A DNA stretch of 64,000 bases from Ideonella oryzae. Lineage in GTDB: Bacteria > Pseudomonadota > Gammaproteobacteria > Burkholderiales > Burkholderiaceae_C. A program made the position numbers and the translations under genes. Below the pieces are notes generated by a model, which was not told the origin of the DNA, made no database searches, and saw only the letters and a list, made by a program, of their open reading frames with translations. Below, in pieces: positions 7,951 through 11,723 of the stretch; position 1 is the first letter of the stretch, and each line of letters starts with the position of its first letter. The DNA lies in NCBI RefSeq assembly GCF_024055665.1, contig NZ_JAMXMC010000010.1, positions 62,001-126,000 on the forward strand, read 5' to 3'.

Positions 7951-8265
7951 CGACCACTCTCCTTTGCAGATGTCAGGGTCGCGGGTCAGTCGGTGACAGC
8001 CCGCCCGGACAGTCTAGGAAGGGTGGCCGTGACAAATCCCGCAAAAAGCATGGTGAACAGGGGGCAGACCCCGTCAGACAACCCCGGGACCACCCGCCTT
8101 TGCGTGCAGGAAATGATAGGCCGTGTAGGAATTTGTCTGACAAGGGGGACGGAAAAACCGGGACTCCAGTTCTGGAAGTGACCCGATGTTGCCGTCCAGT
8201 TCGTGTCCTTACAGTTCATTCCAACGCGAAACAAACGCGCAACACAACCCACCAGGAGCCGCAAC
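7951..8265. promoter_or_regulatory. Divergent intergenic region between glf and flhD
   Basis: This 315-base gap must hold the promoters for glf (leftward) and flhDC (rightward). I cannot point to a convincing -35/-10 pair. It is unusually rich in GTCA/TGAC half-sites: GTCA-N5-TGAC at about 7985-7997, GTGACAA near 8028, and the pair described separately at 8073-8141. The flhD Shine-Dalgarno AGGAG lies just before ATG 8266. No small gene is convincing inside it. Confidence 0.5.
8073..8141. promoter_or_regulatory. Inverted repeat, candidate operator upstream of flhDC
   Basis: GTCAGACAA at 8073-8081 is repeated as its exact reverse complement TTGTCTGAC at 8133-8141. The right copy lies in the palindrome TTGTCTGACAA (8133-8143). 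The two elements are about 60 bp centre to centre, close to six helical turns, as expected for a regulator binding two sites. They lie 125-195 bases before the flhD start. No regulator is assigned. Confidence 0.45.
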
Positions 8266-8589
8266 ATGGAAACGACCCAGATCCTCGCCGAAATTCGCGA
8301 AGCCAACCTGTCCTACATGATGCTGGCGCAAAGCCTGATCCGCGCCGACCGCGAACAAGCCCTGTTCCGCCTGGGCATCTCCGAAGAGACCGCCAACCTG
8401 ATCAACGCCCTGACCCCGGCCCAGATGATGAAGATCGCCACCAGCAACACGCTGCTGTGCCGCTTCCGCATGGACGACGACCTGGTCTGGGGCCTGCTGA
8501 CCAACCACGGCAAGTCTTCGGCCAACGACAGCGTCAGCCGCCTGCACGCCTCCATCCTGATGGCCGGCCGCCACCAGGAAGCCGCCTGA
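8266..8589 (+). CDS. flhD: Flagellar transcriptional activator FlhD
   Basis: The 107-residue protein starts at ATG 8266 (METTQILAEIRE), chosen because CAGGAG sits 7 bases upstream and the start matches the family; an in-frame start at 8203 would add an unrelated extension. FlhD pairs with FlhC as FlhD4C2, the master activator of class II flagellar promoters. The family blocks LSYMMLAQSLIRAD and the NTLLCRFR segment are present. It forms an operon with flhC 48 bases downstream. Its region carries the inverted repeats described at 8073-8141. Confidence 0.95.
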   Translation: METTQILAEIREANLSYMMLAQSLIRADREQALFRLGISEETANLINALTPAQMMKIATSNTLLCRFRMDDDLVWGLLTNHGKSSANDSVSRLHASILMAGRHQEAA

Positions 8590-8637: not shown

Positions 8638-9216
8638 ATGGCCCGCACCAAGAGCATCCTCACCGAAGCCAGGCAGATCGAACGTGCCGTCACCCTGATC
8701 CACCTGGGCGCCCGCCTGCAGGTGCTGGAGTCGGAGACCGATCTGTCGTACGAGCGCCTGCTGCGCCTGTACAAGGAAGTGTCGGGCAAGAGCCCGTCCA
8801 AGGGCCAGCTGCCGTTCTCCACCGACTGGTTCATGACCTGGCAGCCCAACATCCACGCCAGCCTGTTCCTGAACATCCACGAATACCTGAACAAGACCTC
8901 CGAAATGGAGGACATCGACGCGGTGATCAAGGCCTACCAGCTGTACCTGGAGCAGACCGCTGCCCAGGGCCTGGAGCCCCTGCTGTCGGTGACCCGCGCC
9001 TGGCGCCTGGTCAAGTTCGTGGACAACGGCATGCTGACCATGACCAAGTGCACCCACTGTGGTGGTCACTATGTCACCCACCCGCACGAGATCGCACGCC
9101 ATTACGTGTGCGGCCTGTGCAACCCGCCGGCCCGCGCCGGCAAGGGCCGCCAGGCCGGCGCCCTGCAGATGCCCAGCGCTGCCGAGCGCGACGCCTGCAC
9201 GGTCGACGCCCACTGA
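8638..9216 (+). CDS. flhC: Flagellar transcriptional activator FlhC
   Basis: A 192-residue partner of FlhD that provides most of the DNA contacts of the FlhD4C2 complex. The structural zinc site is intact: Cys138 and Cys141 (KCTHCGG), then Cys158 and Cys161 (YVCGLC). The sequence SLFLNIHEYL and the DWFMTWQPNIHAS region are typical of the family. The start has GGACGGAG upstream. The length is the same as E. coli FlhC (192), with an Ala/Arg-rich tail. The flhDC unit is followed by the candidate small RNA rather than running directly into motA. Confidence 0.95.
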   Translation: MARTKSILTEARQIERAVTLIHLGARLQVLESETDLSYERLLRLYKEVSGKSPSKGQLPFSTDWFMTWQPNIHASLFLNIHEYLNKTSEMEDIDAVIKAYQLYLEQTAAQGLEPLLSVTRAWRLVKFVDNGMLTMTKCTHCGGHYVTHPHEIARHYVCGLCNPPARAGKGRQAGALQMPSAAERDACTVDAH

Positions 9217-9243
9217 TTCCCCACGGATCCCTCCGCGTCTGGC

Positions 9244-9270
9244 TCAAGTTCGCCCGGCTTCGGGCGATAA
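9244..9270 (+). promoter_or_regulatory. Sigma-28 (FliA) promoter for a short transcript
   Basis: TCAA at 9244-9247, a 15-base spacer and GGCGATAA at 9263-9270. The FliA consensus is TAAA-N15-GCCGATAA, so the -10 has one mismatch. Start of transcription is expected near 9276-9278. It lies only about 60 bases before a strong terminator stem, so it cannot normally serve motA. Confidence 0.65.
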
Positions 9271-9276
9271 CAAGTC

Positions 9277-9357
9277 AGAAGCAGTTTTCATGCAGCTTCC
9301 TCCTCCTGGCACAGCAGTCGTGTGCCTTGCGGCGGGCCCCTAGGGGCCCGCTTTTTT
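9277..9357 (+). ncRNA. Candidate sigma-28-dependent small RNA between flhC and motA
   Basis: About 80 bases between a FliA-type promoter and an intrinsic terminator with no good coding frame. It can fold into GAAGC/GCTTC (9278-9282 with 9295-9299), a GGCACA/TGTGCC hairpin (9308-9313 with 9321-9326) and the terminator stem. Between the first two lies CTTCCTCCTCCT (9296-9307), a pyrimidine-rich stretch complementary to Shine-Dalgarno sequences, a common seed type in base-pairing sRNAs. E. coli has sigma-28-dependent sRNAs in its flagellar regulon, so such a gene would fit the biology. Exact ends are estimates. Confidence 0.55.
9332..9357 (+). terminator. Strong intrinsic terminator after flhC / the candidate sRNA
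   Basis: GCGGGCCCC at 9332-9340 pairs perfectly with GGGGCCCGC at 9343-9351, followed by six T at 9352-9357. It is the cleanest rho-independent terminator in the window and separates flhDC from motAB. Confidence 0.85.
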
Positions 9358-9399
9358 CTTGGTCGCGCAGCACCCCGCTTTTCCGGCTTTCCAAAAACC

Positions 9400-9426
9400 T
9401 CAAGGCGGCGATGCTCTCTCCGATAT
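9400..9426 (+). promoter_or_regulatory. Sigma-28 (FliA) promoter of motAB-cheYZ
   Basis: TCAA at 9400-9403, a 15-base spacer and TCCGATAT at 9419-9426, matching CCGATA of the FliA -10. It lies after the terminator at 9332-9357 and about 50 bases before motA, so it should drive the motA-motB-cheY-cheZ unit as a class III operon. Confidence 0.65.
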
Positions 9427-9478
9427 GAGGTGAAAGGCGCGCACAAGCGCCGCTCACACCAACCCGGACCGCCACACC

Positions 9479-10336
9479 ATGTTCGTCATCGTCGGCTGGC
9501 TTTTAGCACTTGCATGCGTCTTCGGCGTGTTCATCGCGCACGGCGGGAACATCGAGGTGATCCTGCACGCCCTGCCCTTCGAGATGATCACCATCTTCGG
9601 GGCGGCCCTGGGCGCCTTCCTGGCCACCAACCAGATGAAGGTGATCAAGTCCACCCTGAAGGGTCTGGGCGCCTGCTTCAAGGGCAGCAAGTACTCCAAG
9701 GCCCGCGCCATGGAGCTTCTGGCCCTGCTCTACGAGATCCTGCAGAAGGCCCGCAAGGAGGGCCTGATGTCCATTGAAAAGGACGTCGAGGATCCGCACA
9801 GCTCGCCGCTGTTCCAGAAATTCCCCATCGTGGGCGGCGACCACCACGTGACCGAGTTCATCACCGACTACCTGCGGATGATGGTCTCGGGCAACCTGAA
9901 CGCCCACGAGATCGAGTCCCTGATGGACACCGAACTCGAGACCCACCATCACGAGGCCTATGCCCCGGTGGCCGCCCTGGCCCGACTGGCCGGCGCCCTG
10001 CCCGCCTTCGGTATCGTGGCCGCGGTGCTGGGCGTGGTGAACACCATGGGCTCGGTGGGCCAGCCCCCGGCGGTGCTGGGCGGCATGATCGGTTCGGCCC
10101 TGGTCGGCACCTTCCTGGGCATCTTCCTGGCTTACGGCTTTGCCGAGCCGCTGGCCGGCCTGCTGGAACAGAAGATCGACGAGGACGGCAAGGAGCTGCA
10201 GTGCATCAAGACCACACTGCTGGCCTCCATGCAGGGCTACGCCCCGCAGACCGCCATCGAATTCGGTCGCAAGGTGCTGTACTCGACCGAGCGCCCCACC
10301 TTCGGTGAGCTGGAAAGCCACGTGAAGAAGAAGTAA
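9479..10336 (+). CDS. motA: Flagellar motor stator protein MotA
   Basis: A 285-residue inner-membrane protein forming, with MotB, the proton-conducting stator. Four hydrophobic segments are visible (about 1-20, 33-52, 167-190, 200-220). Arg92 and Glu100 in the cytoplasmic loop (ARKEGLMSIE) match the residues that contact FliG, and Pro175 in ALPAFGIV matches the conserved proline of transmembrane segment 3. The length is normal. It starts the motA-motB-cheY-cheZ unit, 14 bases before motB, behind its own FliA-type promoter. Confidence 0.95.
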   Translation: MFVIVGWLLALACVFGVFIAHGGNIEVILHALPFEMITIFGAALGAFLATNQMKVIKSTLKGLGACFKGSKYSKARAMELLALLYEILQKARKEGLMSIEKDVEDPHSSPLFQKFPIVGGDHHVTEFITDYLRMMVSGNLNAHEIESLMDTELETHHHEAYAPVAALARLAGALPAFGIVAAVLGVVNTMGSVGQPPAVLGGMIGSALVGTFLGIFLAYGFAEPLAGLLEQKIDEDGKELQCIKTTLLASMQGYAPQTAIEFGRKVLYSTERPTFGELESHVKKK

Positions 10337-11324: not shown

Positions 11325-11723
11325 ATGAGCAACCCCACCGATCTCAAATTCCTTGTCGTTGACGACTTCTCCACGATGCGACGCATCGTGCGAGGCCTGC
11401 TCAAGGAAATGGGCTGCAACAACGTCGAAGAGGCCGAGGATGGCCAGGTCGCCCTGAGCATGCTCAAGGGCACCAAGTTCGACTTCGTGGTCAGCGACAT
11501 CAACATGCCGAACATGAACGGCTTCGACCTGCTCAAGGCCATCAAGGCCGACGACAGCCTCAAGCACCTGCCGGTGCTGATGGTCACGGCCGAGGCCCGC
11601 AAGGAAGACATCGTGCTGGCAGCCCAGAGCGGCGCGGCCGGCTACATCGTCAAGCCCTTCACCAAGGCCACGCTGGAAGAAAAAGTCCAGAAGATCATGC
11701 AGAAGCTGGCGGCCACCGCCTGA
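11325..11723 (+). CDS. cheY: Chemotaxis response regulator CheY (copy 1)
   Basis: A 132-residue single receiver domain. Asp13/Asp14 bind Mg2+, Asp58 in [12 protein letters not shown] is the phosphorylation site, the Thr of MVTAEA and the Lys of YIVKPF complete the switch. This copy resembles E. coli CheY closely ([15 protein letters not shown]). Phospho-CheY binds FliM and reverses rotation. It directly precedes cheZ, its expected phosphatase, and follows motB in the same unit. A second CheY is encoded at 16273. Confidence 0.95.

What the first reader, a model, noticed from the sequence alone, without database searches (positions are those of the whole stretch)
9244..9357. A sigma-28-driven small RNA candidate between flhC and motA
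A FliA-like promoter (TCAA-N15-GGCGATAA, 9244-9270) faces an intrinsic terminator with a 9-bp perfect stem and six T (9332-9357) only about 60 bases later, and a second FliA promoter for motA follows at 9400-9426. The roughly 80-base product has no convincing coding frame, can fold into two hairpins plus the terminator, and exposes CTTCCTCCTCCT, complementary to Shine-Dalgarno sites. A flagellar sRNA next to the master regulator would be a natural feedback element. I cannot tell whether this family is already catalogued.
Basis: partly seen in the sequence, partly recalled or inferred. Interest (0 to 1): 0.8.

Follow-up and report, generated by a model that had tools for sequence, protein, structure and literature searches.

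The report
Flagellar small RNA beside flhC
Between the flagellar master-regulator genes and a motor gene, these bacteria carry a short conserved RNA gene that looks switched on together with motility and built to block the start sites of other messages, which may tie swimming to metabolism.

Summary
The flhC-motA gap of this genome (genus of Ideonella sp. B508-1) has a FliA (sigma-28) box at 9243-9270, a CU-rich segment, a hairpin and a terminator ending at 9357. It is no one-genome curiosity. A covariance model of the RNA hits 70 of 299 family genomes; of 70 fetched hits, 63 lie by flhC and/or motA on the same strand (6 had trained the model). Of 80 named loci picked by FlhC similarity alone, 60 carry it (E<1e-4; 8 trained). 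Fourteen of 16 base pairs show changes on both sides. A FliA-like promoter of at least 8 bits precedes it in 72 of 108 loci. GUCUCCUCCU is in 101 of 114 RNAs. No Rfam cut-off is reached. It sits where E. coli has the sigma-28 sRNA MotR, without sequence similarity, and resembles betaproteobacterial double-hairpin sRNAs (RF02278, Bordetella S17) but misses the RF02278 cut-off. Best reading: an uncatalogued FliA-dependent sRNA family masking Shine-Dalgarno sites, more likely of transport and carbon-metabolism mRNAs than of flhDC. Transcription, mechanism and targets are inferred.

The parts
8263..8589 (+). flhD
   Evidence: Pfam FlhD, 140.5 bits
8638..9216 (+). flhC, the gene just upstream of the RNA
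   Evidence: Pfam FlhC, 285.8 bits
9243..9270 (+). FliA (sigma-28) type promoter of the RNA, CTCAAG-N15-GCGATAA
   Evidence: 11/12 consensus match; 18.0 bits with a matrix built from motA promoters, 0 of 40 shuffles reach it
9277..9357 (+). predicted small RNA, about 80 nt (start inferred from the promoter, end from the terminator)
   Evidence: R1 model 73.1 bits, E 3e-14 in own genome (this copy is in the training set); covariation in 61 homologues
9296..9307 (+). CU-rich anti-Shine-Dalgarno seed CTTCCTCCTCCT; commonest form in relatives TTGTCTCCTCCT
   Evidence: the ten columns GTCTCCTCCT are each at least 90% conserved over 114 RNAs; mean unpaired probability of the 10-nt seed 0.76 over 138 rows (duplicates included), 0.47 in the window copy
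9308..9326 (+). hairpin 1 (GGCACA/TGTGCC)
   Evidence: 4 of 6 pairs with changes on both sides among homologues
9331..9357 (+). intrinsic terminator (hairpin 2 plus six T)
   Evidence: 10 of 10 pairs with changes on both sides among homologues
9399..9426 (+). separate FliA-type promoter of motA
   Evidence: 12/12 consensus match
9479..10336 (+). motA
   Evidence: Pfam MotA_N and MotA_ExbB

Best explanation
The gap encodes an independent ~80-nt small RNA that is made by FliA-RNA polymerase when the flagellar cascade reaches its late stage and ends at its own terminator. It is built as a CU-rich 5' seed followed by a small hairpin and a terminator hairpin. It most likely acts in trans, probably with Hfq, by pairing the seed (UUGUCUCCUCCU in most species, AGCUUCCUCCUCCU here) with AGGAGG-type Shine-Dalgarno sites and so blocking translation of a set of mRNAs. 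Likely targets are transport and carbon-metabolism genes, as for the S17/bdhR1 sRNAs with a similar seed. Shown here: conserved sequence, structure, promoter and place. Inferred: transcription, FliA dependence, Hfq, mode of action, targets.
For: R1 hits 70 of 299 family genomes at E<=0.01; of 70 fetched hits 63 lie by flhC and/or motA on the same strand (6 of the 70 were training sequences). Of 80 loci chosen by FlhC alone, 60 have it at E<1e-4, 58 of these within 260 nt of the flhC match and 2 about 810 nt off; 8 of the 60 are training sequences, leaving 52 of 72. In the genus, 15 of 15 flhC-bearing genomes have it (14 of the 15 trained the model). Covariation: 14 of 16 pairs with changes on both sides, 95.7% paired, 0 of 500 shuffles on five measures, far above slid controls. 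Promoter: of 108 loci 72 score at least 8 bits, mean 10.2 against -5.7 in shuffles, and in 93 at most 2 of 40 shuffles reach the real score; where a 10/12 box or better exists it ends 4-26 nt before the RNA model start in 59 of 71 rows. Autonomy: of 124 unique RNAs 59 lie within 400 nt of both genes, 49 of flhC only (motA seen farther off in 34, not seen in 15) and 7 of motA only. Not coding. Seed mostly unpaired: 0.76 against 0.50 for the whole RNA. Targets: a 14-mer complementary to the common seed (<=1 mismatch) has 45 matches in 20 genomes against 7 for the reversed pattern; 14 matches are this RNA itself and 2 are RF02278 copies, leaving 29. Of the 15 non-self loci that I read, 11 end 0-3 nt before an ORF of at least 246 codons or one cut by the contig end: prpE-type genes in 3 genomes, sugar- and other solute-binding proteins, a purine-type permease, biotin carboxylase, aldehyde dehydrogenase, PfkB kinase and one without a family.
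Against: No expression data. Shine-Dalgarno-like matches before ORFs are expected by themselves, so the target list is weak. The window's own subclade (4 of 114 RNAs) has a changed seed; its complement at <=2 mismatches is only modestly enriched (97 against 59 in the own genome, self match included), and the 10-nt seed of the window copy is half paired by the 5' hairpin (0.47). In 36 of 108 loci the promoter scores below 8 bits, and in 15 it is not better than shuffles by the rule used; a few of the 93 that pass have negative scores. Seven of the 70 fetched hits are not by flhC or motA, one of them strong (L087, 51.9 bits).
Confidence: 0.75

Rival explanations
1. A cis element only: the terminator of flhDC, or a leader/attenuator of motA, with no RNA acting in trans.
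For: The hairpin is the only + strand terminator found between flhC and motA, and 59 of 124 unique RNAs lie within 400 nt of both genes.
Against: A terminator needs neither a FliA-type promoter just in front nor a highly conserved unpaired 10-mer; the RNA stays with flhC in 49 loci where motA is farther off or not seen and with motA in 7 where flhC is farther off or not seen; in the window motA has its own FliA box after the terminator.
Confidence: 0.13
2. A feedback sRNA on flhDC or other flagellar mRNAs, or an activator of flagellar genes like E. coli MotR.
For: Same locus and sigma factor as MotR; flhC start regions pair slightly better than shuffles (median z -1.08; flhD -0.68; cheY -0.89).
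Against: motA and motB start regions do not (z 0.38 and 0.21); no sequence similarity to MotR (4.5 bits, E 1.1); one genome without a flagellin match keeps an intact-looking RNA. Coding regions of flagellar genes, where MotR pairs, were not examined.
Confidence: 0.25
3. A small protein gene on either strand (GGAG followed by ATG on the minus strand, or the 17-codon + frame).
For: In some species the complement reads AGGAGGAGACAAGCATG; 42 of 114 have an ATG 3-14 nt after GGAG on the minus strand.
Against: 72 of 114 lack it on the minus strand and 76 of 114 have no + ATG frame; compensatory changes in the stems and the orientation of promoter and terminator point to a + strand RNA.
Confidence: 0.03

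Closest known systems
MotR (E. coli b4828, sigma-28-dependent sRNA)
   Same: Sigma-28 promoter, place between flhC and motA, 95 nt, own terminator.
   Different: No sequence similarity. MotR's promoter lies inside flhC and also serves motA, here motA has its own box; MotR pairs inside the fliC and rpsJ coding regions (passages of PMC10578931), while this seed fits Shine-Dalgarno sites.
RF02278, betaproteobacterial 'toxic' small RNA / double-hairpin RNAs ncS03, ncS05, ncS27, ncS62, bdhR1
   Same: CU-rich 5' segment, short hairpin, terminator hairpin; the RF02278 copy of this genome shares TTGTCTCCTCC with the common form of the flagellar RNA (passages of PMC5688073).
   Different: Listed in 5 of 10 genomes at E<=10, with 15.7-30.2 bits against a cut-off of 50; each of the 10 genomes has a separate RF02278 copy over the cut-off. 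By eye, hairpin 1 lacks the CTCCTCC loop of the RF02278 copy; flagellar locus and FliA-type promoter.
S17/S17S of Bordetella pertussis
   Same: Short form of ~70 nt, CU-rich 5' end, pairing near start sites, many transporter targets (passages of PMC11722255).
   Different: S17S is processed from a longer transcript made by the housekeeping-type polymerase and lies beside coq7. Its letters were not compared here.
Flagellar sRNA pair of Campylobacter jejuni (PMC11187230, search listing only)
   Same: sRNAs in the flagellar hierarchy.
   Different: Not compared; only title and start of the abstract seen.
RF00519 suhB/MmgR and RF02423 Bp1_781
   Same: Weak hits over the RNA in the window (17.8 and 17.1 bits).
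   Different: Far below gathering scores of 41 and 80.

Membership tests
RF02278 (betaproteobacterial toxic/double-hairpin sRNA) | covariance score at or above gathering cut-off (50 bits) | tested here: not met
   Not listed at E<=1 for the window copy nor among the 10 own-genome hits at E<=10; 15.7-30.2 bits in 5 of 10 genomes, not listed in the other 5
RF02278 (betaproteobacterial toxic/double-hairpin sRNA) | two hairpins, the second a terminator, with CU-rich unpaired 5' segment | tested here: met
   (in the window copy itself the segment is half paired)
RF02278 (betaproteobacterial toxic/double-hairpin sRNA) | growth inhibition on overexpression | not testable with these tools
   needs an experiment
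E. coli MotR | sigma-28 promoter and position between flhC and motA | tested here: met
   by sequence only:
E. coli MotR | sequence or structure homology | tested here: not met
   R1 scores the MotR region 4.5 bits, E 1.1 in 3.5 kb
E. coli MotR | Hfq-bound, pairs with fliC and rpsJ coding sequence | not testable with these tools
   needs RIL-seq or CLASH
Rfam release 15 (any family) | match at gathering score | tested here: not met
   (window stretch 8800-9900 and 8 relatives): no hit over the RNA reaches its cut-off

The most novel reading that the evidence does not exclude
A copy of the betaproteobacterial Shine-Dalgarno-masking double-hairpin RNA was placed under FliA control beside flhDC, so that a cell that commits to swimming also shuts down a battery of uptake and catabolic genes. 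In this Ideonella subclade the seed was rewritten, which would have moved the whole target set at once.
Probability: 0.35. Interest if true: 0.8.

Novelty: new variant of a known kind. Interest (0 to 1): 0.63.

Why it matters
A 2023 paper described four sigma-28-dependent sRNAs of E. coli (PMC10578931). This is a conserved, testable betaproteobacterial counterpart at the same locus as one of them, with an unrelated sequence and apparently another mode of action. It offers a handle on how motility and metabolism are coupled, and a natural series of seed changes to test target co-evolution. I saw no report of it in the listings of searches of the open-access library (only the top papers of each are listed; search 70, meant for Ideonella, was swamped by other papers and tells nothing). 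Most subscription papers are not held.

Tried and rejected
Rfam at relaxed thresholds gave only sub-threshold hits over the RNA. RF02423 hits it weakly in 5 of the 8 relatives searched and in the window; its Burkholderia member ncS02 is not called flagellar in the passages seen, so I did not pursue it. Order-wide, 13 of 399 genomes have a hit at E<=0.001; the 11 outside the family score 29.7-38.8 bits, none within about 1.5 kb of flhC or motA, and three look like RF02278 by eye. Pairing with flhD, flhC, motA, motB and cheY start regions gave no clear target. The seed pattern of the window subclade was too common to name targets. One NCBIfam query (third protein, L217) was cut at wrong coordinates and hit another gene; corrected. 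Rows dropped: the 114 RNAs leave out 9 unlinked rows (L032, L044, L079, L087, L103, L109, L110, L113, L115) and L157; L032 and L044 had been added by hand. One search's 124 include all of these. Seven of the 77 rows (E 0.002-0.008) were not fetched. Fifteen of the 45 matches were not read as loci.

Full report
What is there. The genes are confirmed by Pfam. Six sites in the 64 kb reach 10 of 12 consensus positions for FliA, all on the + strand.

Is it more than chance? I searched 60 related genomes for FlhC; 41 have a match. In the genus, 15 of 16 genomes have flhC and these 15 all have the RNA in the gap, whose length varies from 251 to 1356 bases. From 17 such RNAs (14 of the genus, 3 of other genera) I built a covariance model, R1. 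In the own genome the best hit is the finding, 73.1 bits; the next, 33.5 bits, is the RF02278 'toxic sRNA' copy on another contig. In 299 genomes of the family 70 have a hit at E<=0.01, in 77 rows. I fetched 70 of the 77 rows (6 of them training sequences): 63 are by flhC and/or motA on the same strand and 7 are not. A test that does not use the RNA: 80 named loci chosen by FlhC similarity. Sixty have the RNA on the same strand behind flhC at E<1e-4, 58 within 260 nt and 2 about 810 nt off; 8 of the 60 are training sequences. One more is doubtful (L157, 15.6 bits) and 19 have none. Eleven of these 19 are Roseateles, Mitsuaria, Paucibacter or Pelomonas, nine of them with motA seen 780-3360 nt behind flhC, so with DNA inserted; one miss is a locus cut at the end of flhC. 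Named carriers include Ideonella, Rubrivivax, Aquincola, Piscinibacter, Aquabacterium, Rhizobacter and Roseateles toxinivorans.

Structure. On the 61 matches in named loci (L157 included), 14 of 16 pairs change on both sides, 95.7% of cells pair, none of 500 shuffles reaches any of five measures, and slid versions fall to 28-56% paired. That alignment was fitted to the model, so it leans towards the structure; on the MAFFT alignment of the 17 training RNAs 8 of 16 pairs have double changes. GTCTCCTCCT occurs in 101 of 114 unique linked RNAs and this seed is mostly unpaired in the ensemble (0.76; 0.47 in the window copy, which has an extra 5' hairpin).

Promoter. A matrix from 77 of 100 motA upstream regions was scanned over the stretch from the last 40 nt of flhC to the RNA in 108 loci. 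The mean best score is 10.2 bits against -5.7 in dinucleotide-preserving shuffles; 72 of 108 score at least 8; in 93 of 108 at most 2 of 40 shuffles reach the real score, though a few of these have low scores. Fifteen loci have no such box by that rule, and in several of these flhC ends within about 30 nt of the RNA, so there it may come from the flhDC 3' end by processing (inference). Of the 7 loci where the RNA is near motA but not flhC, two have 11/12 boxes 4-5 nt before the RNA start, four 9/12 (10-14 of 200 shuffles as good) and one none.

What it works like. The layout and the seed UUGUCUCCUCC match the double-hairpin RNA of this genome. Its Burkholderia relatives (PMC5688073, passages) and S17S of Bordetella (PMC11722255, passages) are predicted or shown to act by pairing near start sites. 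The R1 and RF02278 models see each other weakly, but each of 10 genomes tested has its own RF02278 RNA over the cut-off, and the flagellar RNA stays at or below 30.2 bits. So it is a related or convergent, separate family. The place and sigma factor are those of E. coli MotR (PMC10578931, passages; annotated record), without sequence similarity.

Targets. Shine-Dalgarno sites that match the common seed are found before prpE-type genes (in the own genome, G001 and G008), solute-binding proteins, a permease, biotin carboxylase, an aldehyde dehydrogenase and a PfkB kinase. Transporters and catabolic genes are also the classes named for S17, but any Shine-Dalgarno-like pattern finds starts of genes, so this is a lead only. 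The window species has a different seed (AGCUUCCUCCUCCU), for which no target could be singled out. Pairing with the flagellar neighbours is weak.

A telling exception. Genome G032 has no flagellin match and only a remnant of flhC (44 residues matched, one stop inside), yet an intact-looking RNA (54.8 bits) 34 nt behind the remnant, with no promoter box better than shuffles (8/12, 53 of 200). One genome of 94% completeness proves little, but it hints at a use beyond the flagellum.

Verdict. A real, conserved, uncatalogued sRNA gene family, very probably FliA-driven; the mechanism is inferred from seed and relatives. The feedback idea is open but not favoured.

Noticed in passing
L079:2949-3034 (G032): Intact-looking RNA beside an flhC remnant in a genome without a flagellin match.
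   Followed up: partly
L087:2988-3067 (G116): Extra copy of the RNA (51.9 bits) with no flhC or motA within 2.9 kb and no FliA-like box.
   Followed up: no
L149:4600-4640 and L182:4620-4652: Azohydromonas: a FliA-like box behind flhC appears, by eye, to lead into an ORF; the RNA is not found.
   Followed up: partly
L022, just behind flhC: By eye, a FliA-like box runs straight into a terminator with almost no RNA body between, as if the RNA had been deleted.
   Followed up: no
L032:1482-1567 (own genome, contig C28:79650-79735): Canonical RF02278 'toxic sRNA' of this genome, 65.7 bits with the Rfam model.
   Followed up: partly
window 11271, 22278, 23917, 29237 (+): Further FliA-like boxes at 10-11 of 12 positions; the first starts 54 nt before a response-regulator gene (cheY-like) at 11325.
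   Followed up: no
G197:C1:1560805-1560890 and G197:C1:2739137-2739225: Two copies of the RNA in one genome, each behind its own flhC copy.
   Followed up: no
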